A stretch of 64,000 nt of DNA from Magnetospirillum sulfuroxidans (lineage in GTDB: Bacteria; Pseudomonadota; Alphaproteobacteria; Rhodospirillales; Magnetospirillaceae): the NCBI RefSeq assembly GCF_018224925.1, contig NZ_JAGTUF010000009.1, forward strand, positions 1 to 64,000, in the 5' to 3' direction. Positions 45,475 to 59,651 of this stretch are shown piece after piece; position 1 is the first letter of the stretch, and every line of letters begins with the position of its first letter. A model generated the notes under the pieces. It had not been told where the DNA came from and searched no databases. It saw only the letters and a list, made by a program, of their open reading frames with translations. Both the position numbers and the translations under genes were made by a program.

Positions 45475-46515
45475 TCAGGATGGTTTGCGCTCGTACCAGG
45501 ATTTGGATGCATTGACGATGCGCACCACCGACAGCATCACCGGCACTTCGATCAGCACGCCGACCACGGTGGCCAGCGCGGCGCCAGAGTTAAAGCCGAA
45601 CAGGGATATGGCGGCGGCCACCGCCAATTCAAAGAAATTCGAGGCCCCGATCAATGCCGCCGGCCCGGCGACGCAATGGGCGATTCCCAATTTCTTGGCC
45701 AACAGATAGGCCAAGCCGGAATTGAAATAGACCTGAATGGTGATAGGCACCGCCAGCAGCAAAATGACCAGTGGCTGGGCGATGATCTGCTCGCCCTGAA
45801 AGGCGAACAGCAACACCAAGGTGGCCAACAACGCCAGCAACGACACCGGCCCCAACACCGCCAGGGTCCCGGCCAGGGCTTGCGCTCCACCGGCCAGCAA
45901 AACCTTGCGCCAGATTTGCGCGACGATCACCGGCACGACGATATACAGCACCACCGACAGCAGCAGCGTTTCCCACGGCACGGTGATTGACGACAGCCCC
46001 AACAGCAAAGCGACGATGGGGGCGAAGGCGAAAACCATGATCAGGTCGTTCAGGGCCACCTGGCTTAGGGTGAAGTGCGGTTCGCCATTGGTCAGGTTGG
46101 ACCAGACGAAAACCATGGCCGTGCACGGCGCCGCCGCCAGCAGGATCAGCCCGGCGATATAGCTGTCGATCTGGTCGGCCGGCAATAGCGGCCGGAACAC
46201 GGTGCTGATGAAGATGTATCCCAGCAGCGCCATGGAAAACGGCTTTATCGCCCAGTTGATGAACAAGGTCAGGCCGATGCCCTTCCAGTGTTCCTTGACC
46301 TGATGCAGGGCGGCGAAATCGATCTTCAGCAGCATGGGAATGATCATCAGCCAGATCAGCACCGCCACCGGCAAATTGACTTGGGCGATTTCCAGCCGGC
46401 CGATGGCCTGGAATGGCGCCGGCAGGAAATGCCCCAACGCCACGCCGGCGACGATGCACAAGGCCACCCACACGGTCAGATAACGTTCGAAAACACTCAT
46501 GGCGGGTTTCGTCAT
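45475..46515 (-). CDS. acr3: Acr3-type arsenite efflux permease
   Basis: This 346-residue protein has ten hydrophobic helices and the Acr3 signatures: FERYLTVWVALCIVAGVALGHFLP, the conserved Cys in LLAAAPCTAMVFVWSNLTNGEPHFTL, and NSGLAYLLAKKLGIAHCVAGPAALIGASNFFELAVA. It exports arsenite using the proton gradient. The ATG at 46515 overlaps the arsC stop by one base; the frame is open far upstream but that is inside arsC. It is the last gene of arsR-arsC-arsC-acr3. Confidence 0.95.
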   Translation of the reverse strand: MTKPAMSVFERYLTVWVALCIVAGVALGHFLPAPFQAIGRLEIAQVNLPVAVLIWLMIIPMLLKIDFAALHQVKEHWKGIGLTLFINWAIKPFSMALLGYIFISTVFRPLLPADQIDSYIAGLILLAAAPCTAMVFVWSNLTNGEPHFTLSQVALNDLIMVFAFAPIVALLLGLSSITVPWETLLLSVVLYIVVPVIVAQIWRKVLLAGGAQALAGTLAVLGPVSLLALLATLVLLFAFQGEQIIAQPLVILLLAVPITIQVYFNSGLAYLLAKKLGIAHCVAGPAALIGASNFFELAVAAAISLFGFNSGAALATVVGVLIEVPVMLSVVRIVNASKSWYERKPS

Positions 46516-46964
46516 CAGACTTCTCCGGCACGGTCGGGGCCAAGTTCGATCAGCTTGGCCACCTTGGCCTTGATCATCTGGTACACGTGGCGAAACACCG
46601 CCAATTGTTGCTCGGGGCTGCCCTCGGCCGCCGCCGGATCGGGGAAACCAACGTGAAGCTTGGACGGATGACCGGGCCAAATCGGGCAAACCTCGCCAGC
46701 GGCGTTGTCGCAGACGGTGATGACCAGATCCATCTTGGGCGCCGCGGGCAGAGCGAACTCGTCCCACGATTTCGACCGCAGGCCCTCCACCTCATGGCCG
46801 TTTTCTCGCAGCACCGCGATGGACAAAGGATTGACCTTTCCGGTGGGATTGCTGCCGGCGCTGTACGCCTTCCATCTTCCACCGCCAAGATCGTTGATCA
46901 AGCATTCCGCCAAAACCGAACGGGCCGAATTGCCGGTGCACAGCACCAGAACGTTTGTGGTCAT
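46515..46964 (-). CDS. arsC: Arsenate reductase, LMW-phosphatase type (copy 1)
   Basis: This 149-residue enzyme reduces arsenate to arsenite. The phosphatase loop is LVLCTGNSARSVLAE; the resolving cysteines are the pair in VITVCDNAAGEVCPIWPG; the Asp in FPDPAAAEG completes the site. The order matches thioredoxin- or glutaredoxin-coupled ArsC of the low-molecular-weight phosphatase family. A second, clearly different copy lies just upstream. It overlaps acr3 by one base. Confidence 0.94.
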   Translation of the reverse strand: MTTNVLVLCTGNSARSVLAECLINDLGGGRWKAYSAGSNPTGKVNPLSIAVLRENGHEVEGLRSKSWDEFALPAAPKMDLVITVCDNAAGEVCPIWPGHPSKLHVGFPDPAAAEGSPEQQLAVFRHVYQMIKAKVAKLIELGPDRAGEV

Positions 46965-46967
46965 GAC

Positions 46968-47465
46968 TCAGGCCTTCTTGCCGATGTCGTTGAGGCGTTT
47001 TTGCAGCGTCAGCTTATCGAGCGAGCGAATGGGCAGCGCCGTGAAGATATGGATACGGTTGGACAGCATGCGCATGACCTCTGCCGTGTGGGCGGCCTTT
47101 TCCACATCCGAGCCGGCAAAGCCGACCGGATCGGGAACCCCCCAATGGGCGGTCATCGGCTGGCCCGGCCAGATCGGACAGATCTCTCCGGCGGCGTTGT
47201 CGCAGACGGTAAAGACGAAATCCAATTGGGGGGCACCGTCCTTGGCGAACTCATCCCACGATTTCGACCGCAAGCCCTCGGTGGGGTAATTGGTCTTCTT
47301 CAGCAGGGCCAGCACGGTCGGATCAATCGCGCCCTTGGGATGACTGCCGGCGCTGAAGGCCTTGAACTTGCCGGAAAGATCGGAGTTCAAGATGGCTTCA
47401 GCCATGATCGAACGGGCTGAATTGCCGGTGCACAGGAACAAGACGTTATAGGCTTTGTCGCTCAC
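46968..47465 (-). CDS. arsC: Arsenate reductase, LMW-phosphatase type (copy 2)
   Basis: This 165-residue protein carries the same active-site elements as its neighbour: LFLCTGNSARSIMAEAIL, VFTVCDNAAGEICPIWPG and VPDPVGF. It differs elsewhere and has a longer C-terminal tail (SLDKLTLQKRLNDIGKKA) that copy 1 lacks, so the two are diverged paralogues rather than a recent duplication. The GTG at 47465 overlaps the arsR stop (GTGA). Confidence 0.93.
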   Translation of the reverse strand: MSDKAYNVLFLCTGNSARSIMAEAILNSDLSGKFKAFSAGSHPKGAIDPTVLALLKKTNYPTEGLRSKSWDEFAKDGAPQLDFVFTVCDNAAGEICPIWPGQPMTAHWGVPDPVGFAGSDVEKAAHTAEVMRMLSNRIHIFTALPIRSLDKLTLQKRLNDIGKKA

Positions 47466-47878
47466 GATGGTCTCCCGCAGCAGATGGCTTCCGCTTGAGG
47501 CATCGTCGTCAACGCCGCCCGTCCCTCGTCGCACAACACCTGCAACGGCACCGCATTGACCTGAACCAGCACCACGCGATCGGCGGCGATGGTCGGATCG
47601 TCGCCCAGCGCCGCCGCCAGCAGATCAAGGAAAGGCCGGGCATGGGCATTGAAATCGCGTTCGGCCAGCCGGTAATACACCCACTTGCCGTCGCGGCGGC
47701 TTTGCGCCAACCCCGCCGTTTTCAGCGCCGCCAGATGTTTGGAAACCGTCGCCGCCGCCAATCCCAGGACGGTGGTGATCTGACAGACGCACAATTCACC
47801 GCCTTCCAGCAGCTTCAAGATGCGTATCCGAGTCGGGTCGGCGACCGCTTTGGCGGTGATTTCGAAAGTCTCAAGCAT
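47462..47878 (-). CDS. arsR: ArsR-family arsenic-responsive repressor
   Basis: This 138-residue repressor has the ArsR winged helix (FEITAKAVADPTRIRILKLLEGGELCVCQITTVLGLAAATVSKHLAALKTAGL). The As(III)-sensing cysteines are in ELCVCQI at the start of the recognition region. A C-terminal extension with two more cysteines (VLCDEG, ICCGRP) goes beyond the minimal ArsR length and could add a metal site. It leads the arsenic operon and presumably represses it by binding the dyad just upstream. Confidence 0.92.
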   Translation of the reverse strand: MLETFEITAKAVADPTRIRILKLLEGGELCVCQITTVLGLAAATVSKHLAALKTAGLAQSRRDGKWVYYRLAERDFNAHARPFLDLLAAALGDDPTIAADRVVLVQVNAVPLQVLCDEGRAALTTMPQAEAICCGRPS

Positions 47879-47995: not shown

Positions 47996-48679
47996 TCAGG
48001 CGCAACACCCGCCGGACACGGCACGCACCACCTCAATGGGATGATCCGCGCTGATCGGAGCCATGGCATCGCCAAGCGCGCCTTCGGCCAGCCATTCCAT
48101 CAGCCCGTACAGCAGATGGGTGGCGTTGGGCATGAAATTGCTGCCGTGGTGGAACACCGGGTCCAAGGTCGAGACGATCAGCCGACCAGCGGTGCTGGCG
48201 CGGTCGATATACAGCAAGGACCCTTCCCCCTCGACATCGACCAGCGATATGGCGCCTGGGGGTGGGGTCAGTACGCCGTGATAATGCCAGATCACGTGAC
48301 CGGCGCCGACATGGGCGAACAAGGGATGGCTTGGCCGCATGATCCGGATGCCGGGATCAACGCCCCCGTCCAACCACCACCAGAAATTCACTTCGGTCGA
48401 ACGGTTGACGATTCCGGGCAGGAATTCATCGGCCGCATCGGCATTCAGCGACACCACCGTACCGCCGCCATCAAGATAGGCGCGCAAGGCCCCGGCAAAG
48501 GGAATCAGGCTGTCGGGATCAATGCGGCAGGGCAATAGCACCACATCGAAATCGTCCAGCCGCGTCGCCCCCAGATCACCGACATGAACGCGGCGATCAA
48601 TGAAGCGGGCCACCCGAGGATCGGCATAGGAAAAATGATGGAAGTAGGTGCCGCCATCGACAGCAAGGATCTTACGCAT
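47996..48679 (-). CDS. ThuA/glutamine-amidotransferase-like protein (second of pair)
   Basis: This 227-residue cytoplasmic protein looks like a class I glutamine-amidotransferase or ThuA-type Rossmann-like fold: RKILAVDGGTYFHHFSYADPRVARFI, DFDVVLLPCRIDPDSL, AYLDGGGTVVSLNADAADEFL. It lacks the amidotransferase nucleophile motif (GxCxG), so glutaminase activity is unlikely. It contains a tryptophan cluster (NFWWWLDGG), several His (HVIWHYHGV, VFHHGSNFMPNATH) and ends in CCA. It is coupled by an 8-base overlap to the similar upstream gene. A role with the divergent uptake operon is inferred. Precise function unknown. Confidence 0.65.
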   Translation of the reverse strand: MRKILAVDGGTYFHHFSYADPRVARFIDRRVHVGDLGATRLDDFDVVLLPCRIDPDSLIPFAGALRAYLDGGGTVVSLNADAADEFLPGIVNRSTEVNFWWWLDGGVDPGIRIMRPSHPLFAHVGAGHVIWHYHGVLTPPPGAISLVDVEGEGSLLYIDRASTAGRLIVSTLDPVFHHGSNFMPNATHLLYGLMEWLAEGALGDAMAPISADHPIEVVRAVSGGCCA

Positions 48680-49295
48680 CGCAGGTCTCTCCGCGCATTT
48701 CGCTTTTCAGCCAGTTCAGCAATTGCGGCGCCATCCGCGCCGCCGAGGTGGGGTCGCCGGCATAGGCCCATAAATCCAGACCGCCATGCATGAATACGGT
48801 GCCGCCCTTGGGCCGCCGCCACAGCCAATCCAACGCGACCTTGCCGGCCCCTAAGCCATTCAGGGCGATAGCCCCATCCGGCGGCGGGTTGTGGCCGCGC
48901 CCGTAAAAGCCGGCGACGCCACGGCGAAAGGTCAGATCCTCCTCGGCGACGCCAGCGAATACCGGATGATCGGCCAAACGATGCACCGCCAAGGCGTCGG
49001 TGCCGTGTCCGCTCTGCGGCAGGAATGGCGCCACATCGGCCAGCAGCGGATAAGCCATATGGCCATTGACCACCAGCAATCCGCCGCGATCGAGAAAGGA
49101 TTCCAGCTTGTCCGCATGGCGGGACAAGCTGGCCTGATCGGTCAGCATGGACATGATAATCGCCCCATACGGGCTGAGGTCCAGCTCGGGAAAACGGCTC
49201 TGATGCACGTTTTCCACCATCCCCGCCCAGAGCGGGGCATCGAATATTTTCGGCGCGTGATCACGCTTACAACGAAGGAATAAGCACCGTTTCAT
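48672..49295 (-). CDS. ThuA/glutamine-amidotransferase-like protein (first of pair)
   Basis: This 207-residue protein shares the same apparent fold: AGMVENVHQSRFPELDLSPYGAIIMSMLTDQASL, then FLDRGGLLVVNGHMAYPLL where an amidotransferase would have its Cys elbow, and HPVFAGVAEEDLTFRRGVAGFYGRGHNPPP. The N-terminus has two cysteines (RCLFLRCKRDHAP). No catalytic Cys is apparent. It faces the TonB-like operon across a promoter region with Fur-like boxes, so both arms are probably co-regulated. Function unknown. Confidence 0.65.
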   Translation of the reverse strand: MKRCLFLRCKRDHAPKIFDAPLWAGMVENVHQSRFPELDLSPYGAIIMSMLTDQASLSRHADKLESFLDRGGLLVVNGHMAYPLLADVAPFLPQSGHGTDALAVHRLADHPVFAGVAEEDLTFRRGVAGFYGRGHNPPPDGAIALNGLGAGKVALDWLWRRPKGGTVFMHGGLDLWAYAGDPTSAARMAPQLLNWLKSEMRGETCDA

Positions 49296-49329
49296 GACAG
49301 AGGTTTCCTGTTGGGTTGACGAAAGTCAA

Positions 49330-49383
49330 TGATTCTCATTCGCATAACCTATTGCATATGCGAAGAGAAGATAATGAGAATCA
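49330..49383. promoter_or_regulatory. Composite inverted repeat with Fur-box-like arms
   Basis: Outer arms TGATTCTCATT (49330-49340) and AATGAGAATCA (49373-49383) are perfectly complementary and match classical Fur-box sequence (GATAATGATAATC family); with flanks, AAGATAATGAGAATCACTT is especially close. Inner arms TTCGCATA (49339-49346) and TATGCGAA (49357-49364) form a second nested dyad. Placed between divergent ThuA-like and TonB-like genes, it suggests iron control of both. Confidence 0.6.
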
Positions 49384-49385
49384 CT

Positions 49386-49402
49386 TGCATATATTGTATG
49401 CA
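49386..49402. promoter_or_regulatory. Dyad TGCATA-N5-TATGCA
   Basis: A perfect 6-bp inverted repeat, TGCATA-TATTG-TATGCA, lies 3 bases after the Fur-like arm and 43 bases before the TonB-like start. It shares the TGCATA core with the inner part of the upstream repeat. A second regulator site or part of the core promoter is possible. Confidence 0.4.
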
Positions 49403-49445
49403 GAATATAGCGTCTCCCTACCACTCTGCCTAGAGGAAAACCTGC

Positions 49446-51452
49446 ATGAGATTGCGCCGTATCCCTGTTTTGCTGGCCGGAGCCGCCTTGATATCAACCT
49501 CGGCCGCCGCCCAGGAAAGCGCCGCCATCGCCCCGACCTTGCCGAAGACCGCGGTGATTCCGGTGTTGACCCAGCACGACAAGCCCAGTCCGTTCCCCTT
49601 GCTGCCGCTGTGGGAACTGGGATGGGCGCCGGCCGAGATGGCCTATCGTCGCGACAAGGTTCACCCCACCGCCGGGGTCTTGGATTCGGTCGCCAATTCC
49701 ACCGCCCCGATCAAGCTGGGCGCTGGCTACACCAGTGCCGGCAGCGCCAAGGAAGTGTTCGGCCAAACCGCCATCCGCACCGCCCTGGCCACCATCCAGG
49801 CAAGCGTCAATTACGAAAATGCCGGCCAGTTTGCCGATGGCAACGGCGACGAAGTGCGCAGCGGCTATGACCGCCACACCGAACAACTGGCCCTGGTGCT
49901 GCGCCCCAATGCCGACAGCACGCTGCGCGCCATGGTCCTGCACGACCGCATCGACGATCAGATGCTGCCCATGCCGGTCACCGTCAACCAGAACGGTGTC
50001 GCCCTGCCGGAAGGCTTTGGCGCCGATCCGATCAAGACCGAACGCACCTTGGGCCTGTTGGCGGCGGAAACCACCAAGCCAATCACCGGCCTGGACAAGC
50101 TCAAGCTGGAACTGCGCTATGTTGGCCTTGAACGCGTCGCCAACAACTTTTCCTTGCGGCAGGAAACCGCCGCCGCCAACCGCAACATCGCCAAACCCTC
50201 TCGGTACGAGTTCGGCGGCAACCTTTCGGGTGAAGCCGCCCTGGCCGCCGACCTGGCGGCGCGGATGACGGTATCGACCAAGCGCATCTGGCACGATGCC
50301 ACCCGCTGGGGCGGCCCCGGCGTCAATAACCTAAGCCAGATCACCGGTTTCCAGTATCCCGGCATCGAGATGTGGGAAAGCGCCGCCGATGTCGATCTGG
50401 CATGGAAGCCCGGCGCCGCCACCGACATCAATCTGGGGGTGCGCTACGATTACGTCACCGCCGACGCCACCAAGGCCGACAATCTGATGCGCATCGGCAA
50501 TTACAGCGGTACGGCACGCAGCCTGTACCAAAGCTATTTCGGCGATGTCGACACCAGCGGCGAGGATCATCTGATCAGCCTGAAGCTGGACGGTGAACAC
50601 AAGATGGTCGGTGACCGCCTGTCGCTGACGGGTTCGATCGGCCGGATCATGCGCGCCGCCGATTCTCAGGAACGCTATTTCGCCCTGCCTTCGGCCAACA
50701 ACGCCACCGCCGCCGGCACCGCCACCCGGCAGGTCGGCAATCCCAACCTCAACCCGGAAGTGCATTACCGGGCCGAAACCGGCATCGCCCTGAAAGGCGC
50801 GGACTGGCTGGATTACGGCCGCAAACGCCCCGGTGGCGACAATTTCCTTGGCAGTCAGTCGTGGCGGGTATCGCTGAGCGGCTATGTCGATCAGGTCGAG
50901 GATTTCATCAGTCGCGACCGCGCCCACGGTCAAAGCGGCGTGTTGCTCAATGACAACGCCTTCATCTGGCGCAATGTCGATGCCCGGCTGGCCGGCACCG
51001 AGGCCGAAGCCGCCATCAATCTGACCCGCAATCTGTCGACCAAGCTGGCGCTGTCTTATCGCTGGGGCGAGAACACCTCGGATGGCCGCGCCCTTTATGG
51101 CATCGACCCGCTGGAAGCCAATTGGCTGGTGGATTACCAAGACAGCCTCAGCGAAATCGGCTCGTGGAATGTCGGATTCAAGCTCCGCGCCGTCGCCAGC
51201 CAGACCCGGCTGGATGCCGATGCATCCACCGGCAGCGGTTTCGATGCCGCCAATGGCGGGGGCTTCGGTCTGTTCGATCTTTATGCCGGGGTGCAGTTCC
51301 TTGACACCGTCGGCGTCCGTGTCGGCATCGACAACGTCTTCGACAAGACCTATGCCGAACACAATCCCGCCAACACCACCGACGACCCCAATCCCAGCGC
51401 CGTCAATGGCCCCGGCCGCAGCTTCTATGCCCGCGCCATCGCCACGTTCTGA
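49446..51452 (+). CDS. TonB-receptor-like outer-membrane beta-barrel lacking a recognisable plug
   Basis: This 668-residue protein has a signal peptide (MRLRRIPVLLAGAALISTSAAAQ) and a barrel that looks like TonB-dependent receptors: alternating strands such as ATIQASVNYENAGQFADGNGDEVRSGYDRHTEQLALVLRPNAD, and the C-terminal GVRVGIDNVFDKTYAEHNPAN...SFYARAIATF ending in Phe. The usual ~130-residue plug domain with its VLDGVP-like and RGFG motifs is not visible; only about 85 low-complexity residues (PFPLLPLWELGWAPAEMAYRR) precede the barrel. No clear TonB box is seen. It leads the operon downstream of Fur-like sites. Either a plugless porin derivative or an extremely divergent receptor. Confidence 0.75.
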   Translation: MRLRRIPVLLAGAALISTSAAAQESAAIAPTLPKTAVIPVLTQHDKPSPFPLLPLWELGWAPAEMAYRRDKVHPTAGVLDSVANSTAPIKLGAGYTSAGSAKEVFGQTAIRTALATIQASVNYENAGQFADGNGDEVRSGYDRHTEQLALVLRPNADSTLRAMVLHDRIDDQMLPMPVTVNQNGVALPEGFGADPIKTERTLGLLAAETTKPITGLDKLKLELRYVGLERVANNFSLRQETAAANRNIAKPSRYEFGGNLSGEAALAADLAARMTVSTKRIWHDATRWGGPGVNNLSQITGFQYPGIEMWESAADVDLAWKPGAATDINLGVRYDYVTADATKADNLMRIGNYSGTARSLYQSYFGDVDTSGEDHLISLKLDGEHKMVGDRLSLTGSIGRIMRAADSQERYFALPSANNATAAGTATRQVGNPNLNPEVHYRAETGIALKGADWLDYGRKRPGGDNFLGSQSWRVSLSGYVDQVEDFISRDRAHGQSGVLLNDNAFIWRNVDARLAGTEAEAAINLTRNLSTKLALSYRWGENTSDGRALYGIDPLEANWLVDYQDSLSEIGSWNVGFKLRAVASQTRLDADASTGSGFDAANGGGFGLFDLYAGVQFLDTVGVRVGIDNVFDKTYAEHNPANTTDDPNPSAVNGPGRSFYARAIATF

Positions 51453-51472
51453 CCACAAAGGATAGCTCTCTC

Positions 51473-52465
51473 ATGCACGATTTTTCCCGCCGCGCCCTGC
51501 TGGCCGGCATCGGCGCCACCGCTAGCCTGAGCCAGCTGCCCCGCGCGGGCCGCGCCGCCGCCCTGGACACCCTGACCATCAGCGCCATGCCGGCGACGCC
51601 GTCGGTGGTTATCGCCCATCTGGTGGAAACCGGGGCGCTTTCCGCCCATGTGGCCAAGACGGTGATGAAGGTCTGGCGCACCCCCGACCAGATGCGGGCC
51701 GGCGTGTTGTCGGGCGACATGAAGGTGTTCGGCACGCCGTCTTATTCCTGCGCCAATCTGTTCAATCGCGGCGTTCCAATCCGCCAGCTCAACATCCTCA
51801 CCTGGGGCTTGCTTTATGTCATGAGCCGTGATCCGGCGGTGACCAGGATCGAAGATCTTGCCGGCCGTCAGGTCTTGCAATCGTTCCGGAACGACGCCCC
51901 TGACCTGATTTTCCGCCTCGTGCTCAAACGCAAGGGCATGGACCCGGACAAGGACGTCAAACTGCACTATGTCGGCACCCCCACCGAAGCGACGCAATTG
52001 TTCCTGGCCGGCAAGACCGACATCGCCGTGCTGCCCGAACCGGCGGCCAGCGCCGCCATTTTACGCGGCATGCAGACTGGCGTCGCCGTCCATCGCGCCC
52101 TCGACCTGACCGCGATCTACGGCGAGATCACCGGCCGGGGGCCGCGTCTGCCTCAGGCCGGTATGGGCGTGTCCGAGGAACTGGTGCAAAAGCAGCCCGA
52201 ACTGGTCAAGGCGCTCCACCAGGCTTGCGTCTCCAGCGCCCGTTGGGTGATGAACAACCCCGCCAGCGCCGGCAAGTTAGGCGCCGATTATCTGGATCTG
52301 CAACCGGCCATCGTTCAGCAATCGCTGCCGCATTTCCGCCTGGGCGTCGCCTCGGGCCAGGAAGCCAAGGCCGACATGGAGGCGTATTTCACCGACCTGA
52401 TGGAATTGTCGCCCGACATCGTCGGCGGCAAACTGCCAGACCCTCGCTTTTATTGGGGATCGTAG
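51473..52465 (+). CDS. NrtA/TauA-like ABC substrate-binding protein, Tat-exported
   Basis: This 330-residue protein starts MHDFSRRALLAGIGATASLSQLPRAGRAAA, a twin-arginine signal (SRRALL). The mature part has the NMT1/SsuA-like fold: LTISAMPATPSVVIAHLVETGALS, IEDLAGRQVLQSFRNDAPDLIF, LFLAGKTDIAVLPEPAASAAI. This cluster of binding proteins serves nitrate, sulfonates, thiamine precursors and similar small anions; the ligand here is unknown. Tat export suggests folding or cofactor loading before export. Starts 20 bases after the TonB-like gene and precedes its permease by three bases. Confidence 0.85.
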   Translation: MHDFSRRALLAGIGATASLSQLPRAGRAAALDTLTISAMPATPSVVIAHLVETGALSAHVAKTVMKVWRTPDQMRAGVLSGDMKVFGTPSYSCANLFNRGVPIRQLNILTWGLLYVMSRDPAVTRIEDLAGRQVLQSFRNDAPDLIFRLVLKRKGMDPDKDVKLHYVGTPTEATQLFLAGKTDIAVLPEPAASAAILRGMQTGVAVHRALDLTAIYGEITGRGPRLPQAGMGVSEELVQKQPELVKALHQACVSSARWVMNNPASAGKLGADYLDLQPAIVQQSLPHFRLGVASGQEAKADMEAYFTDLMELSPDIVGGKLPDPRFYWGS

Positions 52466-52468
52466 ACA

Positions 52469-53305
52469 GTGACCATACCGATCGGGACGGCGGCTCGCGG
52501 CCGCGCTTTGCGGGCGTTGGATTACATCTGGGGCGGCTGGGGCGCGGCCGCCAGCCTGTTGTTGCTGGTGGCGCTGTGGGAGGCCGGACATGCCGCCTAT
52601 GGCACCTTGGTGCTGCCCTCGCCCCGCGATTCCTTCGTCGCCCTGTGGACGATGAGCGCCGCCGGCCGGGTGTTGCCGGCGGTGCTGGAAACCAGCGCCA
52701 ACGCCTTGGGCGGCTTTGCCGCCGCCGCCCTGATCGGGGGGATATTGGGGGCGATGGCCGGCGCCTCGGACATGATGCGCCGGCTGTTGCAGCCGATCGC
52801 CACCCTGATGCTTGGAATCCCGGCCATCGCCTGGGTGGTGCTGTCGCTGTTATGGTTCGGCGGCACAGGCTTGGCGGTGTCGTTCACCGTCTTGGTCACC
52901 ACCGCCCCCATCGTCTTTGCCGGTTCGGCCCAGGGCGTGCGGACCTTGGACGGCGCGCTCAGGCGCATGGCCCAGGCCTTCCGCATCCCCCGCCCCGCCC
53001 TGGTCTGGGACGTCTACCTGCCGCACATGCTGTCCTATTTGTTCCCCGCCTTGGCCACCGCTTTGGCGTTGTCGTGGAAAGTCACCGTCATGGCCGAATT
53101 GCTGAGCGGCGCCGGTGGCATCGGCGACGGTCTGGCCACCGCTCGGGTCCAGGTCGATACGGTCAAGGCCATGGCCTGGGTGGTCATGGTCGTCACCCTG
53201 CTGCTGGCGCTGGAATATCTGCTGCTGGAACCGATCCGCCGGCACTTGCAGATCTGGCGTCGCGAAATGCCGGGGGGTCCGCCCTCTTCCTCCGGCGGTT
53301 TTTAG
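52469..53305 (+). CDS. ABC transporter permease (SsuC/TauC-like)
   Basis: This 278-residue inner-membrane protein has five to six helices and the BPD_transp_1 EAA loop in RRMAQAFRIPRPALVWDVYLPHMLSYLFPALATAL. The start is a GTG at 52469, three bases after the binding-protein stop. It forms the channel for the adjacent binding protein and the ATPase that begins 11 bases downstream. It belongs to the nitrate/sulfonate/bicarbonate group. Confidence 0.88.
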   Translation: MTIPIGTAARGRALRALDYIWGGWGAAASLLLLVALWEAGHAAYGTLVLPSPRDSFVALWTMSAAGRVLPAVLETSANALGGFAAAALIGGILGAMAGASDMMRRLLQPIATLMLGIPAIAWVVLSLLWFGGTGLAVSFTVLVTTAPIVFAGSAQGVRTLDGALRRMAQAFRIPRPALVWDVYLPHMLSYLFPALATALALSWKVTVMAELLSGAGGIGDGLATARVQVDTVKAMAWVVMVVTLLLALEYLLLEPIRRHLQIWRREMPGGPPSSSGGF

Positions 53306-53316
53306 GAATAATCCGC

Positions 53317-54084
53317 ATGAATGCCCTGTCTTCTGGCTTGACCGTCACCGGCCTGCGCCATGCTTTCGGCCCTCACGATGTCCTGGCCGATATTTCGTTC
53401 AACCTGCCGCGCGGCCGTATCGGCTGCCTGATCGGTCCGTCGGGCTGCGGCAAAAGCACGTTGCTGGCGATGATCGGCGCCTTGGCTCACCCCACCCACG
53501 GCCACATCCATCACGATTTCCGCCATCCGGTGTTTGTCTTTCAAGACCCCTGTCTGCTGCCCTGGCGCAACGCCGCCGACAATATCGCCTTCGCCCTTAA
53601 GGGATCGCGGATCGAACGCCGCCAGCACCAGCAGCGCGCGTGCGATCTGCTGCGGGTGGTCGGGCTGGAGCCAGACGATGCCGGCAAGTTTCCGCACGAG
53701 CTTTCCGGCGGCATGCGTCAGCGCGTCGCCCTGGCCCGCGCCTTGGCGGTCGAGCCTGATTTGCTGCTGCTGGACGAACCATTCAGCGCCCTGGATGTCG
53801 GCTTGCGCCGGCAGATGCAGGCTTTGGTCCGGCGCTTGATCAGCGAACACGGACTGACCGCCCTGCTGGTCACCCACGATCTGGCCGAGGCCGTGCGCAT
53901 GGCCGACCGGATCTTGGTGCTGACGGCCAAGCCGGCGCGACTGGCCGCCGGCCACGACATCGCCCGCCCCTTCGCCCAGCGCGACGACGGTTTCGTTCAT
54001 GCCGAAGTCGGCCGCCTGCTGGCCAACCCGGCCATCGCCGCCGCCTTGGCCGTCGAGGACATGGGCCACGGGGAACCGACATGA
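53317..54084 (+). CDS. ABC transporter ATP-binding protein (SsuB/TauB-like)
   Basis: This 255-residue ATPase has Walker A IGPSGCGKSTLLAMIGAL, Q-loop VFVFQDPCLLPWRNAADNIAFAL, signature ELSGGMRQRVALARAL, Walker B LLLLDEPFSALDVG and the switch His in LLVTHDLAEAVRMADRI, all intact. The ATG at 53317 starts just after the permease; the frame runs open far upstream, but inside permease coding sequence. It powers the neighbouring permease. Overlaps the NnrS-family gene by four bases (ATGA). Confidence 0.92.
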   Translation: MNALSSGLTVTGLRHAFGPHDVLADISFNLPRGRIGCLIGPSGCGKSTLLAMIGALAHPTHGHIHHDFRHPVFVFQDPCLLPWRNAADNIAFALKGSRIERRQHQQRACDLLRVVGLEPDDAGKFPHELSGGMRQRVALARALAVEPDLLLLDEPFSALDVGLRRQMQALVRRLISEHGLTALLVTHDLAEAVRMADRILVLTAKPARLAAGHDIARPFAQRDDGFVHAEVGRLLANPAIAAALAVEDMGHGEPT

Positions 54085-55232
54085 GCATTGTTCTGGCCTA
54101 TGGCTTCCGTCCGTTCTTCCTGCTGCTGCCGCTCGCCGCCATCGGCGCGGTGCTGCCCTTGCCGGTGTTGTGGCTGGGCTGGGGCGGCGGGACCAGCCTG
54201 CCCGCCGGATTGTGGCATGGACATGAACAGATTTTCGGCTTTCTCACCGCCGCCCTGGCCGGCTTTCTGCTGACCGCCTTGCCCAGTTGGAGCGGAGGAC
54301 CGCCGGTAACCGGGCGGCCCCTGGCTCTGCTGGTCGGGCTGTGGCTGCTCGGCCGCATCGGTTTTTGGCTCGATGGCTTGTTGCCGCCGTCGCTGGTGGC
54401 TGGGTTGGATTTGTTGTTTTTGCCGGCTTTGCTGCTGGCCATTGCACCGTACCGCCGGCCCTGGGAATTTGCCGCCGCCGTGATCTTGCTGATTGGCGCC
54501 AACACCGTCTTTCACCTCGGCCGGTTGGGCCTGCCGACCCCGCCGGCCGAGCAAAGCCTGCATGCCGGCCTTAATCTGTTTCTGATCCTGATCGCCCTCG
54601 CCAGCGGCCGCATCCTGCCAGTGGCCTTGCGCTCGGCACTGCTGGAAACCGGTCAGGCGCCGACGGTTCGGCTGGCCCCCGGCCGACGCCATCTGGCCGC
54701 CGCCACCTTGGCCCTGTTCGCCTTGGCCGACCTGCTGGCCCCTGACAACCCGGTCACCGGCTGGATTGCCCTGGCCGCCGCTTGCGCCCAGGCCGACCGC
54801 ATGGTCGAGCTGCATCACGGCCCCGCCTTGCTGCGTCCCCAGGTCTTTTTGTTCTATCTGGCGCAAGGATGGATGGTATTGGGTCTGGGCGGATTGGGCT
54901 TGGCCATTCTGGCGATCGACCTCGACCCCATCGCCATCCGCCACGCCCTGGGACTGGGCGCCGCCACCACCGCCGCCGTGGCGGTCATGTCCATCGTCGC
55001 CCTGCGCCATAGCGGCCGCGCCTTTCCCCTGCCCACGGCGATCTGGGCGATCATGGCGCTGATCAGCCTTGCCGCCTTGTGGCGCATCGCCGTGGCGCTA
55101 TGGTGGCCAAGCTCCATGGCGCTCTGGGGCGTCACCCTGCCCAGCATCTTGTGGGCGACAGCATTCCCGCTTTGGCTGCGCTGCTTCGCCCCTTGGCTGC
55201 TGACGCCACGGGCCGACGGTCAGACCGGCTGA
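54081..55232 (+). CDS. NnrS-family polytopic membrane protein
   Basis: This 383-residue protein has about twelve hydrophobic helices and NnrS marks: AYGFRPFFLLLPLAAIGAVLPL at the start, GLWHGHEQIFGFLTAALAGFLLTALPSW with conserved His residues, NTVFHLGRLG and HHGPALLRPQVFLFYLAQGW. NnrS is a heme- and copper-containing membrane protein that helps protect against nitric oxide, probably by preserving the cellular iron pool. Here it is not with denitrification genes but closes the Fur-linked ABC operon (ATGA overlap). A role in handling the imported metal or ligand is inferred. Confidence 0.82.
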   Translation: MSIVLAYGFRPFFLLLPLAAIGAVLPLPVLWLGWGGGTSLPAGLWHGHEQIFGFLTAALAGFLLTALPSWSGGPPVTGRPLALLVGLWLLGRIGFWLDGLLPPSLVAGLDLLFLPALLLAIAPYRRPWEFAAAVILLIGANTVFHLGRLGLPTPPAEQSLHAGLNLFLILIALASGRILPVALRSALLETGQAPTVRLAPGRRHLAAATLALFALADLLAPDNPVTGWIALAAACAQADRMVELHHGPALLRPQVFLFYLAQGWMVLGLGGLGLAILAIDLDPIAIRHALGLGAATTAAVAVMSIVALRHSGRAFPLPTAIWAIMALISLAALWRIAVALWWPSSMALWGVTLPSILWATAFPLWLRCFAPWLLTPRADGQTG

Positions 55233-55292: not shown

Positions 55293-55331
55293 GCTTAATC
55301 GCCGATGCGTCTTATCCGCAAGAGGAACACC

Positions 55332-56495
55332 ATGCCCAAGCAATTCGCCCTTCTTCGCGCAGCCACCTTCGTGGCGCTGACGGCTGTCCTTGCGGCCTGC
55401 GACGACAAATCGGCGGCAGCCCCAACGGCGCCGCCGCCGCCGGAAGTCAGCGTGGTGTCGGTGCAGCCGCAACGCATGGCGGTCAGCACCGAATTGCCGG
55501 GACGGACCGCGGCGTTCCGCGTCGCCGAAGTGCGGCCGCAAGTCAGCGGCATCATTCAAAAGCGCCTGTTCGTCGAAGGCGGCGAGGTCAAGGCCGGACA
55601 GCAACTTTATCAGATCGACCCCGCCCCCTATGCGGCCGCCCTGCAAAGCGCCCGAGCCGAGCTGAACAAGGCCGAAGCCACAGCCAGGGCGGCGCGGACC
55701 AAGGCCGGACGCTATAGCGAACTGGTCAACCGCGACGTGGTCAGCCGGCAATCCTTTGAAGACGTCGTCGCCGCCAACGAACAGGCGGCAGCCCAGGTCG
55801 GCATCGCCAAGGCGGCGGTCGAATCGGCCCGCATCAATCTGGATTACACCAAGGTGCTGTCGCCCATCGCCGGCCGCATCGGCGGCTCGGTGGTCACCGA
55901 GGGGGCCTTGGTCACCGCCGGACAGACGGCGTCATTGGCGACGGTGACCCAGCTTGATCCCATTTATGTGGACGTCACCCAATCCAGCGCCGATCTCATG
56001 CGCCTGCGGCGCGACATCGCCGACGGCAAGTTGCACGGCGCCGACGACACCCAGGCTCCGGTCGCGCTGAAGCTGGATGGCGGCCAAATCTATTCCGAGC
56101 CGGGCAAGCTGCAATTCTCGGAAGTTACCGTCGATCCCAGCACCGGTTCGGTCCGGCTGCGCGCCGTGTTCCCCAATCCGCGCAACGAATTGCTGCCCGG
56201 CCTGTTCGTGCGCGCCACCATCGATCAAGCGGTCAAGGATGACGCGCTGCTGGTGCCGCAACAAGCCTTGACCCGCCGCCCCGATGGCAGCGCCCTGGTT
56301 TGGGTGGTCGATGGCGAAAACAAGGTTGCTCCGCGCCCGGTCACCGCCCCCCAGGCCCTGGGTGACAAATGGCTGGTGACCGCCGGCTTGCAGCCCGGCG
56401 AGCAGGTCGTCGTCCAAGGTTTGCAAAAGATCAAGCCCGGCATCAGCGTTCGTGCCGTCCCGGCCCAACCGGCCGCCGCCGCCGTCGCGAAGTAA
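55332..56495 (+). CDS. RND efflux periplasmic adaptor (membrane fusion protein)
   Basis: This 387-residue lipoprotein links an RND pump to an outer-membrane channel. It has a lipobox (VLAAC) at the end of its signal, a biotinyl-lipoyl-like domain (EVRPQVSGIIQKRLFVEGGEVKAGQQLYQIDP), a coiled-coil hairpin (YAAALQSARAELNKAEATARAARTKAGRYSELV), and the beta-barrel domain (LDPIYVDVTQSSADLMRLR). It closely resembles the AcrA/MexA group. I use the ATG at 55332 with an AGAGGA site. The permease gene starts nine bases later. Confidence 0.94.
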   Translation: MPKQFALLRAATFVALTAVLAACDDKSAAAPTAPPPPEVSVVSVQPQRMAVSTELPGRTAAFRVAEVRPQVSGIIQKRLFVEGGEVKAGQQLYQIDPAPYAAALQSARAELNKAEATARAARTKAGRYSELVNRDVVSRQSFEDVVAANEQAAAQVGIAKAAVESARINLDYTKVLSPIAGRIGGSVVTEGALVTAGQTASLATVTQLDPIYVDVTQSSADLMRLRRDIADGKLHGADDTQAPVALKLDGGQIYSEPGKLQFSEVTVDPSTGSVRLRAVFPNPRNELLPGLFVRATIDQAVKDDALLVPQQALTRRPDGSALVWVVDGENKVAPRPVTAPQALGDKWLVTAGLQPGEQVVVQGLQKIKPGISVRAVPAQPAAAAVAK

Positions 56496-56504
56496 GGAAC
56501 AGCC

Positions 56505-59500
56505 ATGTCGCGCTTTTTCATCGACCGCCCGGTTTTCGCCTGGGTCATCGCCATCATCATCATGATGGCCGGCGCCCTGGCCATCCTCAAGCTGCCCATC
56601 TCTCAGTACCCCAGCATCGCGCCGCCAGCGGTGTCGATCAACGCCAGCTATCCCGGCGCCTCGGCCAAGACGCTGGAAAACACGGTGACCCAGGTCATCG
56701 AGCAAAAGATGAACGGCATCGACGGCCTGCGCTATCTATCGTCCACCAGCGATTCGACGGGCACCGTCACCGTCACCTTGACCTTTGATGCCGGCACCAA
56801 CCCCGACATCGCCCAGGTGCAGGTGCAAAACAAGCTGCAACTGGCCATGCCGCTGTTGCCGCAAGAGGTGCAGCAACGCGGCGTCACCGTGACCAAGGCG
56901 GTCAAAAGCTTTCTGATGGTCATCGCCTTTGTTTCCGGCGACGGCAGCCTCAGCCAATACGACATCTCGGATTTCGTCGCCTCGAACATTCAAGATTCCA
57001 TCAGCCGGGTCGGCGGCGTCGGCGAAGTCACCTTGTTCGGCCAGCAGCATTCCATGCGCGTCTGGCTTGACCCCAACAAACTGACCAGTTACGGCCTGAC
57101 CACCAGCGACGTGGTCAAGGCGATCACCGCCCAGAACGCCGAAGTCTCGGCCGGTCAGCTGGGGGGAGCCCCGGCGGTGCCTGGCCAGCAGATCAACGCG
57201 ACCATCATCGCCCAGACCCGCCTGCAATCCACCAGCCAATTCGGTGAGATCTTGGTGCGCGTCAATTCGGACGGATCGCTGTTGCGGTTGTCCGACGTCG
57301 CCCGCATCGAATTGGGGGCGGAAAACTATGACATCGTCAGCCGCTACAACGGCAAGGCGGCGTCGGGTCTGGCCATCAAGCTGGCCGCCGGCGCCAACGC
57401 CCTCAATACCGCCGATGCGGTGCGCGCCCGTCTGGCCCAGTTGCAGCCCTTCTTCCCCCAGGGGATGGAAGTGCATTACCCCTATGACACCACTCCCTTC
57501 GTCAAGCTGTCGATCAAGGAAGTGGTCAAGACCCTGGTCGAGGCCATCGTCCTGGTCTTCCTGGTGATGTACCTGTTCTTGCAAAACTTCCGCGCCACCC
57601 TTATCCCCACCATCGCCGTGCCGGTGGTGTTGCTGGGCACCTTTGGCGTGCTGTCCGCCTTTGGCTTTTCCATCAACACCTTGACCATGTTCGGCTTGGT
57701 GCTGGCCATCGGATTGCTGGTCGATGACGCCATCGTCGTCGTCGAAAACGTCGAACGCGTCATGAGCGAGGATGGATTACCCCCACGCGAAGCCACCCGC
57801 CGTTCCATGAACCAGATCACCGGCGCCTTGGTCGGCATCGGCTTGGTGCTGTCGGCGGTGTTCATTCCCATGGCCTTTTTCGGCGGCTCTGTCGGCGTCA
57901 TCTATCGCCAGTTTTCCATCACCTTGGTCTCGGCCATGGCCTTGTCGGTGCTGGTCGCCTTGGTTCTGACCCCGGCCCTGTGCGCGACATTGCTAAAGCC
58001 CGTCCACGCCGGGGATTATCACAAGACCGGCTTTTTCGGCTGGTTCAACCGCAATTTCGAGCGCGGCAGCAACACCTATCGCAACGGCGTGCGCGGCATC
58101 TTGGGCCGCAAGAAGCGGTTTTTCCTGATGTTCGCCCTGTTGCTGATCGCCTTGGGCGTGTTGTTCACCCGCCTGCCCACCGCCTTCCTGCCCGAGGAAG
58201 ACCAAGGCATCATGTTCGCCCAGGTCTCGACCCCGCCCGGCGCCACCACCGAACGCACCTTGGAAGTGGTCAAGCAGGTCGAACAGCACTTCCTGGAAAA
58301 GGAAAAGGACTCCGTCAACGGCCTGTTCACGGTGGTTGGCTTCAGCTTCAGCGGCCGCGGCCAGAACTCGGCCATGGCCTTCGTCAACCTGCGGGATTGG
58401 GATCTGCGCCACAGCCCCGACAAAAAGGTCGGGGCCATCGCAAGGCGCGCCATGGGGGCATTTTCCGGCATCAAGGACGCGCTGGTCTTCGCCTTTACCC
58501 CGCCATCGGTGATCGAGCTGGGCAACGCCTCGGGCTTTGACTTCCAATTACTTGATCGCGGCGGCTTGGGCCACGAGGCCTTGTTGCAGGCCCGCAACCA
58601 ATTGCTGGGCATGGCGGCGCAAAGCCCGGTGCTTGTCGGCGTCCGCCCCAACGGCCTGGATGACACGCCGCAATTCCGCATCGACATCGACCGCCACAAG
58701 GCCAGCGCCCTGGGGCTGTCGCTGGCCGACATCAACACCACCTTGTCGGCGGCGTGGGGTGGTTCCTACGTCAACGACTTCATCGACAACGGCCGGGTCA
58801 AGAAGGTCTATCTCCAGGCCGACGCCCCCTTCCGCATGTTGCCCACCGATATCGACCGCTGGTACGTGCGCAATACCGCCGGCGAAATGGTGCCGTTCTC
58901 GTCCTTCTCCAGCTCGACCTGGACCTATGGCTCGCCCCGTCTGGAACGCTATAACGGCATTTCGTCGCGGTCGATCCTGGGCCAGCCGGCCCCAGGCCGC
59001 AGCTCGGGCGAGGCGATGGCGGTAATGGAAGAGATCGCCGCCAAACTGCCCGCCGGCATCGGCTATGAGTGGAGCGGCCTGTCCTACGAGGAACGGCTGT
59101 CCGGGTCCCAAGCCCCCGCCCTTTACGCCATTTCCCTGCTGGTGGTGTTCCTCTGTCTGGCGGCGCTGTATGAAAGCTGGTCGATTCCGTTCTCGGTGAT
59201 GCTGGCGGTGCCCCTGGGCATCTTGGGCGCGGTGCTGGCGGCGATGATCCGCTTCTTGCCCAACGACGTTTATTTCCAGGTCGGCCTGTTGACCACCGTC
59301 GGCCTGTCGGCCAAGAACGCCATCTTGATCGTCGAATTCGCCAAGGCGCTGCACGAACAAGGCATGTCTTTGGCCGAGGCCGCCATCGAAGCCGCCCGTC
59401 AACGCCTGCGGCCAATCCTGATGACCTCGCTGGCCTTTATCTTGGGCGTCCTGCCGCTGGCCATGGCCGACGGCGCCGGCTCGGGCAGCCAGAACGCCAT

Positions 59501-59651
59501 CGGCGTCGGCGTCATGGGCGGCATGATTGCCGCCACCGTCTTGGGCATTTTCTTTGTGCCGCTGTTCTTTGTCAGCGTGCTGCACCTGTTCCGCAAACGC
59601 ACGCAAAAGCTTCCGCATGAACTCACCCAGGTCGAAGCCGGTGAAATTTAG
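56505..59651 (+). CDS. RND multidrug efflux permease (HAE1, AcrB-type)
   Basis: This 1048-residue inner-membrane pump exports hydrophobic or amphiphilic compounds using protons. It starts [23 protein letters not shown], like AcrB. The proton-relay aspartates are in [18 protein letters not shown] (TM4) and the Lys in [17 protein letters not shown] (TM10). Porter-domain and TolC-docking elements fit standard length. Downstream are only the regulator and no outer-membrane channel, so it must use a TolC-like protein encoded elsewhere. Confidence 0.96.

What the first reader, a model, noticed from the sequence alone, without database searches (positions are those of the whole stretch)
47996..55232. 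Candidate undescribed iron-linked uptake/protection system
Seen: two paired ThuA/GATase-like genes divergent from a five-gene operon (TonB-like barrel, Tat-exported NrtA-like binding protein, permease, ATPase, NnrS) with coupled overlaps and a shared promoter region containing Fur-like arms. Known: NrtA/TauA-type importers normally carry small anions and are not usually iron-regulated, and NnrS normally accompanies nitric-oxide metabolism. Inference: the seven genes act together in iron-dependent uptake or handling of an unidentified ligand.
Basis: partly seen in the sequence, partly recalled or inferred. Interest (0 to 1): 0.75.

Follow-up and report, generated by a model that had tools for sequence, protein, structure and literature searches.

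The report
Iron- and anoxia-controlled importer with plugless barrel
A five-gene uptake operon, found in bacteria of several classes, pairs an outer-membrane barrel that has lost its usual plug with a small-molecule importer and NnrS, a protein reported to protect iron from nitric oxide; its promoter carries sites typical of both oxygen-loss and iron control, and what it carries is still unknown.

Summary
The core is five genes: plugless TonB-family barrel, Tat-type NMT1/NrtA-like binding protein, permease, ATPase, NnrS. Of the best 80 relatives of the binding protein (531 confirmed), 54 have at least 6 kb on each side; permease, ATPase and NnrS lie nearby in 52, 54 and 47. The outer-membrane partner is this plugless barrel or an ordinary plugged TonB receptor, with no intermediates. 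The shared promoter holds two Fur-like boxes and the window's only strict FNR-type palindrome. Both site types are enriched before relatives: FNR 16/79 vs 14/301 control promoters, Fur 14/79 vs 13/301, both 8/79 vs 1/301; most promoters have neither. The divergent gene pair is not core: it accompanies the operon in 2 of the 80 loci, both near kin, and elsewhere mostly stands beside iron importers; its ThuA/GATase label found no support. Best reading: an importer for anoxia plus iron shortage, taking in a small iron-linked organic ligand while NnrS guards iron from NO. Ligand and regulation are inferred. OprC-type copper uptake is unlikely: the copper site is absent.

The parts
47996..48679 (-). 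Second gene of the divergent pair (227 aa), family without Pfam, NCBIfam or PDB match; accessory
   Evidence: next to iron(-siderophore) ABC importer genes elsewhere
48672..49295 (-). First gene of the divergent pair (207 aa), paralogue of the other; overlaps it by 8 nt; accessory
49316..49329 (.). FNR/DNR/NnrR-type palindrome TTGACGAAAGTCAA, the only strict site of this type in the window
   Evidence: enriched before relatives, 16/79 vs 14/301
49325..49343 (.). Fur-like box 1 (13/19), overlapping the FNR-type site
49370..49388 (.). Fur-like box 2 (15/19, best of the window)
49446..51452 (+). Plugless TonB-family outer-membrane barrel (22 strands in the model), closest solved relative OprC
51473..52465 (+). 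Periplasmic binding protein, NMT1/NrtA/SsuA class, twin-arginine signal (SRRALL; motif recalled)
52469..53305 (+). ABC permease
53317..54084 (+). ABC ATPase
54081..55232 (+). NnrS membrane protein
   Evidence: PF05940, 253.3 bits

Best explanation
The five genes 49446-55232 form one transport operon that is activated by an FNR-type regulator when oxygen is gone (and NO is likely) and repressed by Fur when iron is plentiful, so it is on only under anoxia plus iron shortage. A small ligand, most likely an organic iron chelate or iron-mobilising molecule, enters through the plugless barrel (in some relatives through a plugged TonB receptor), is caught by the Tat-exported binding protein and pumped in by the permease and ATPase. 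NnrS, made from the same mRNA, keeps the incoming iron from being trapped as dinitrosyl-iron complexes. The divergent gene pair is an add-on in the window's close kin that may process an imported metal ligand in the cytoplasm. Shown: gene conservation, plug loss, exchange of outer-membrane partners, enrichment of both site types. Inferred: actual regulation, the nature of the ligand, the guarding role of NnrS here, the role of the pair.
For: Gene content: permease 52/54, ATPase 54/54, NnrS 47/54 nearby; same set in Neisseria (NnrS confirmed), Vibrio, Campylobacter, Lonepinella. FNR- plus Fur-type sites. Iron-linked neighbours: a FUR-family gene (PF01475), ferritin and imelysin in Nitratiruptor, ChaN and a second TonB receptor in Arcobacter, iron ABC genes in Bartonella. 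Anoxia-linked neighbours: nap genes, NnrU, Rrf2 regulator and pseudoazurin, Crp/Fnr regulators. nosZ in 29 of 50 carriers vs 50 of 299 of a phylum sample. Papers (passages) report that NnrS protects the iron pool from dinitrosyl complexes without removing NO (PMC9246220; PMC5710167) and that nnrS belongs to NO-responsive regulons (PMC1274295). No His, Cys or Met is conserved in >=85% of 82 binding proteins, which argues against a bare soft-metal ion.
Against: No ligand, expression or binding data. 63 of 79 cassette promoters lack a strict FNR-type site and 65 of 79 lack a Fur-like match of 13 or more. The nearest relative UBA6219 (L055/L190) has no FNR-type site and a best Fur-like match of 12/19, 217 bp upstream. 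In the own genome only one of four plugged TonB receptors has a similar box (14/19); of the eight best other sites of a degenerate motif, one lies about 0.7 kb upstream of a FUR-family gene and one beside a gene that looks by eye like an ABC ATPase, the rest pointed to no iron gene I could recognise. 7 of the 54 well-flanked loci lack NnrS nearby: L061, L091, L092, L102, L105, L109, L111, among them three Bacilli and a Chloroflexales MAG. The class of binding protein usually carries small organic molecules or anions, not siderophores (family knowledge). Conserved D72, D141, E172, E189, Y327 leave direct cation binding open.
Confidence: 0.42

Rival explanations
1. Iron-sparing import: the system brings in an organic cofactor or precursor that the cell cannot make when iron is short or NO has damaged iron-sulfur enzymes.
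For: NMT1/THI5-class binding protein; conserved W68, R75, N95, E189 and no His/Cys/Met suit an organic ligand; Fur plus FNR control fits loss of iron-sulfur enzymes; methyltransferase and cupin genes near the cassette in some loci; a gene annotated cobN nearby in Diaphorobacter.
Against: No riboswitch at gathering score in the window or in the 7 of 80 loci scanned. Cofactor-synthesis genes beside the cassette were not searched for systematically.
Confidence: 0.22
2. Copper uptake of the OprC/NosA kind for copper enzymes of denitrification.
For: Barrel closest to OprC by sequence profile (E 1e-62) and fold; best NCBIfam hit TIGR01778 copper receptor in all five plugless barrels scanned; NnrS listed as a cuproprotein (PMC6769254 passage); nosZ enriched in carriers.
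Against: The plug, which holds Cys143/Met147 in OprC, is absent; His323 is replaced by an invariant Arg and Met325 by Ala, Asn or Pro in 23 of 23 barrels (position match through the profile alignment); 173 bits against a cutoff of 472; 21 of 50 carriers gave no nosZ match (some genomes are incomplete); Fur-type boxes point to iron.
Confidence: 0.13
3. An ordinary nitrate/sulfonate-type anion importer whose linkage to NnrS reflects life with nitrate.
For: Similarity to SsuA, SsuC, NtrB and SaoX/SaoP models; closest solved structure is named nitrate transport protein (3hn0, E 5e-29).
Against: These NCBIfam hits lie far below cutoff (SsuA 36 of 163.5; SsuC 76 of 347; NtrB 67 of 209 bits); a dedicated TonB-family outer-membrane partner is unusual for anions (family knowledge); Fur-type sites.
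Confidence: 0.1
4. One reading: the divergent pair is an essential part of the same pathway (not exclusive with the best explanation).
For: Same divergent arrangement in the window, UBA6219 and M. aberrantis; the pair sits beside iron importers in other bacteria and a haloarchaeon, so an iron theme is shared; in Martelella NC18 pair and cassette lie about 2 kb apart.
Against: Pair near the cassette in 2 of 80 loci, 2 of the 54 well-flanked ones; absent beside it in G404, G864, G857.
Confidence: 0.25

Closest known systems
OprC/NosA TonB-dependent copper receptors
   Same: 22-stranded barrel, alignable over its whole length; OprC and NosA are described as expressed anaerobically (PMC8610252 passages)
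   Different: no plug, no CxxxM-HxM copper site, own subfamily next to an ABC-NnrS cassette
NrtA/SsuA/TauA/NMT1-class ABC importers
   Same: three-part importer, binding-protein class
   Different: linked NnrS and outer-membrane partner, FNR/Fur-type promoter sites, below the specific cutoffs
NnrS of NO-responsive regulons
   Same: PF05940 protein, linked to anaerobic nitrogen-oxide genes
   Different: here part of a transport operon with Fur-type sites
Iron-siderophore ABC importers
   Same: uptake with likely Fur control; some have the same divergent gene pair beside them
   Different: annotated as iron-type binding protein and permease, other families than here; no NnrS seen in those stretches

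Membership tests
TonB-dependent transporters | 22-stranded barrel | tested here: met
   PF00593 79.6 bits; model pLDDT 84.2, pTM 0.83; strand count is mine from its DSSP. PF00593 hits 16 of the 23 aligned plugless barrels
TonB-dependent transporters | N-terminal plug domain | tested here: not met
   PF07715 hits 0 of 23 plugless barrels at E<=1 and 0 of L050/L051, against 54-55 bits in OprC-like controls L004/L005. Home-made plug profiles: plugged-receptor type 26 of 26 at 4e-23 or better vs none of 29 below 4.6, but this one scores OprC-like plugs poorly (E 0.016-0.16); an OprC-type profile finds left-out OprC-like plugs at 2e-53 or better and none of 29 below 1.6
TonB-dependent transporters | TonB box | tested here: inconclusive
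   hydrophobic TAVIPV-like stretch in the N-terminal arm of close kin, not in Neisseria-type barrels (by eye)
OprC/NosA copper receptor | CxxxM in plug and HxM in barrel | tested here: not met
   plug missing; R230 and A/N/P232 at the HxM positions in 23 of 23
OprC/NosA copper receptor | NCBIfam TIGR01778 cutoff | tested here: not met
   173.2 of 472.45 bits
Nitrate/sulfonate ABC importer | specific NCBIfam cutoffs (SsuA, SsuC, NtrB, NtrCD) | tested here: not met
   36.1/163.5, 75.7/347, 67.3/209.05, 162.9/291.8 bits
Nitrate/sulfonate ABC importer | binds nitrate or sulfonates | not testable with these tools
   -
NnrS | PF05940 gathering score | tested here: met
   253.3 of 28 bits
ThuA / class I glutamine amidotransferase-like | profile or structural match | tested here: not met
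   no Pfam, NCBIfam or PDB match; model unusable, so a distant relation stays open
Fur regulon | Fur box in promoter | tested here: inconclusive
   15/19 and 13/19 matches, enriched before relatives; genome-wide support weak; binding not testable
FNR/DNR/NnrR regulon | FNR-type palindrome in promoter | tested here: met
   49316-49329; enrichment p 4e-5; binding not testable

The most novel reading that the evidence does not exclude
A so far unnamed class of iron importer for NO-rich, anoxic life: TonB-family barrels that have lost their plug work as dedicated, ungated (or arm-gated) channels for a small iron ligand, and NnrS is the built-in guard that stops NO from seizing the incoming iron.
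Probability: 0.27. Interest if true: 0.8.

Novelty: new variant of a known kind. Interest (0 to 1): 0.6.

Why it matters
It ties NnrS, a long-known protein without an agreed molecular job (recalled), to one conserved transport operon and to iron shortage plus anoxia, which makes its role testable. It also shows a broadly spread subfamily of TonB-type barrels without plugs, replaced by plugged receptors beside the same importer in other bacteria, so natural plug loss can be compared with the usual design, presumably on the same cargo.

Tried and rejected
Copper uptake (OprC/NosA): rejected as membership, kept as weak rival, because the copper ligands are missing. Nitrate/sulfonate importer: below specific cutoffs. 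Vitamin control by riboswitch: none at gathering score in the window or in 7 of the 80 loci. Genome-wide use of the Fur-like motif in the own genome: an exact 11-mer occurs only twice, both here; a degenerate 15-mer is enriched over its reversed control (62/57 vs 15/13 sites), but the eight best other sites did not form a recognisable iron regulon (one is near a FUR-family gene); one of four plugged TonB receptors has a related box. A structure model of one divergent-pair protein was too poor to search with. My first plug test turned out to be weak for OprC-type plugs, so plug absence was retested with Pfam and an OprC-type profile, with positive controls; the result held. A few barrels of genome family f37 are also plugless and sit beside other genes, so plug loss is not tied to this operon alone. 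A looser FNR pattern with random-window controls (26 of 80 vs 2.7 expected) was replaced by the promoter control, which gives a smaller but still clear excess. Paper searches: 9 used; no description of the operon found.
Full report
WHAT IS THERE. The seven ORFs are at the stated coordinates. The divergent pair (47996-48679 and 48672-49295, minus strand, 8-nt overlap) and the five-gene run (49446-55232, plus strand) share a 150-bp intergenic region. The five are a TonB-family barrel, an NMT1-class binding protein with a twin-arginine signal (motif recalled), a permease, an ATPase and NnrS. Gaps are 20, 3 and 11 nt and a 4-nt overlap. The host is an unnamed 4.13-Mb genome; its binding protein is 82% identical to that of Rhodospirillaceae bacterium UBA6219 and 74% to that of Magnetospirillum aberrantis. 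It has one nosZ match and four TonB receptors with plugs.

THE BARREL HAS NO PLUG. Pfam finds only barrel models. Over the 23 aligned plugless barrels, PF07715 (plug) hits none at E<=1 while PF00593 (barrel) hits 16; two OprC-like controls give plug scores of 54 and 55 bits. A profile of OprC-type plugs finds each of seven left-out examples at 2e-53 or better, but none of 29 plugless proteins below E 1.6 and not the window barrel. The model, built from 23 sequences, has pLDDT 84.2, pTM 0.83 and by my count 22 strands; residues 31-88 are predicted with moderate to high confidence as an extended arm with one short helix, residues 1-27 with low confidence. The nearest solved protein is OprC by sequence (E 1e-62) and by fold (Foldseek E 1e-31, TM about 0.67). 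The OprC paper (passages) gives the copper ligands as Cys143 and Met147 in the plug and His323 and Met325 in the barrel. The first two have no counterpart. The last two align with Arg230, invariant in 23 of 23, and residue 232, which is Ala, Asn or Pro.

A CONSERVED OPERON WITH TWO KINDS OF OUTER-MEMBRANE PARTNER. In all 80, permease, ATPase and NnrS lie nearby in 77, 76 and 68. In the 54 with at least 6 kb on both sides: 52, 54 and 47, all three in 45 (the ATPase test may also catch unrelated ABC ATPases). The 7 well-flanked loci without NnrS are L061, L091, L092, L102, L105, L109 and L111, among them three Bacilli and a Chloroflexales MAG. I examined 55 TonB-family proteins found near the cassette: 53 from these loci plus one each from L050 and L051. 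29 lack a plug signal and 26 have a clear plug, nothing in between (one of the 26 is a 166-aa fragment, L112, and L057 carries a rearranged 524-aa piece). In the 80 loci the partner is a plugless barrel directly upstream in 26, an inverted plugless barrel in 1, a plugged receptor in 25 (9 directly upstream), and none found in 28, some of which are cut contigs. Other outer-membrane families were not searched for, except that in Sulfurimonas the gene before the binding protein is a PF13557 protein. Plugless carriers include Rhodospirillaceae, Thalassospira, Cohaesibacter, Vibrio and Aliivibrio, Burkholderiales, Campylobacter and the pasteurellacean Lonepinella. On a tree of 82 binding proteins (window, L050, L051 and 79 of the 80; L129 was dropped) the three labels plugless/plugged/none need 14 changes at the fewest, against a shuffled mean of 38.8; the plugless label alone needs 6, of which 5 are forced by well-supported branches. 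So partners were lost or exchanged several times, though not at random; the label 'none' is partly due to cut contigs.

THE PROMOTER. The intergenic region has Fur-like matches of 15/19 and 13/19, rank 1 and joint rank 3 of the window. It also has the FNR-type palindrome TTGACGAAAGTCAA at 49316-49329, the only TTGA[CT]N4[AG]TCAA in 64 kb. M. aberrantis (L056) and G404 (L187) show the same pairing of site types; UBA6219 (L055/L190) does not. Across relatives (window not counted), strict FNR-type sites stand before 16 of 79 operons against 14 of 301 other promoters of the same loci (p 4e-5); Fur matches of 13 or more before 14 of 79 against 13 of 301 (p 2e-4; 8 of 26 in plugless-barrel operons); both before 8 of 79 against 1 of 301. 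Related loci are not independent, so the p values are optimistic. Most promoters have neither kind of site. In the own genome the evidence that this motif marks other iron genes is weak.

NEIGHBOURS. Anoxia and nitrogen-oxide genes recur: nap genes with UbiD/U32/SCP2 genes, pseudoazurin, NnrU and Rrf2, Crp/Fnr regulators, Hcp and hemerythrins. Iron themes recur too: FUR-family gene, ferritin and imelysin, ChaN and a TonB receptor, iron ABC genes. These are examples from the plasmid records that I opened, not a count. nosZ is matched in 29 of 50 carrier genomes given to the search (50 of the 80 loci) and in 50 of 299 of a phylum-wide sample that includes the own genome. The two sets differ in make-up, so this only shows enrichment.

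THE DIVERGENT PAIR. The two proteins are paralogues. In the plasmid records opened they occur side by side or fused, mostly next to iron or iron-siderophore ABC importer genes: Methylosinus, Rhizobium etli, Agrobacterium vitis, Martelella, Shinella, Aliivibrio, and a haloarchaeon. Two other contexts were a nickel/dipeptide-type and an Nrt-type importer. They are uncommon: 8 of 150 genomes of the order and 7 of 385 of the class (different queries and thresholds, own genome included). Beside the present operon they occur in the window, UBA6219 and M. aberrantis, and not in G404, G864 or G857. They look like an add-on that itself belongs to metal-ligand import.

HOW IT PROBABLY WORKS. The promoter logic would mean on when oxygen is absent and iron is short. 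[quoted passage not shown] PMC5710167, both citing earlier work that I did not see). Placed in an importer operon with Fur-type sites, the simplest joint role is to protect iron that the importer brings in or frees. The binding protein belongs to a class that holds small molecules. In 82 sequences no His, Cys or Met is conserved at 85% or more, while W68, D72, R75, N95, D141, E172, E189 and Y327 are, so I favour an organic ligand, with or without iron, over a bare metal ion. The ligand is the main unknown. A plugless barrel would let a small ligand pass by diffusion, or be gated by the N-terminal arm; relatives use TonB receptors for the same importer.

STATUS. Shown: the operon, its spread, plug loss, partner exchange, enrichment of both site types, absence of the OprC copper site. 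Inferred: regulation, cargo, the role of NnrS, the role of the pair. In the held library I found no description of the operon or of this plugless subfamily (searches; subscription papers are mostly not held).

Noticed in passing
L034:6611-7132 and, by position only, L036:6611-7126, L038:6605-7114: In some iron-importer operons that hold the divergent gene pair, a third small gene follows; in Methylosinus it has a sub-threshold FmdE match (22.2 of 22.9 bits).
   Followed up: partly
L052:7359-9308, L053:7185-9149 (also L054): Another group of TonB-family barrels without a plug match (genome family f37); in L052 and L053 it sits beside what look by eye like a histidine kinase/response regulator pair and a very large surface protein, and none of the ABC or NnrS genes was found in the three stretches.
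   Followed up: partly
L069, L075, L078, L086, L091, L102, L109, L114: A SAM methyltransferase gene lies near the cassette in these 8 of 80 loci, with a cupin-like gene in five of them; a separate Cupin_2 gene follows in Lysinibacillus L109, and cupin genes also occur in Paraclostridium L048 and Diaphorobacter L049. Possible extra parts of the pathway.
   Followed up: partly
L042:6385-13578: In the gonococcal record the barrel and NnrS genes are each split between two frames, while an unnamed near relative (L051) has them whole; the operon may be decaying there.
   Followed up: no
window 45475-47878: Next to the divergent pair lie two ArsC-like genes (PF01451), an SBF-family transporter gene (PF01758, ACR3-like by eye) and an ArsR-family regulator: probably an arsenic operon.
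   Followed up: partly
window 55305-59651: An RND efflux adaptor gene and an AcrB-family pump gene follow the operon on the same strand.
   Followed up: no
L023:1970-6847: UbiD, SCP2 and U32-peptidase genes, as in oxygen-independent quinone synthesis (recalled), stand near the cassette in Agrobacterium; clusters that look alike by eye recur in 6-8 of the 80 loci.
   Followed up: no
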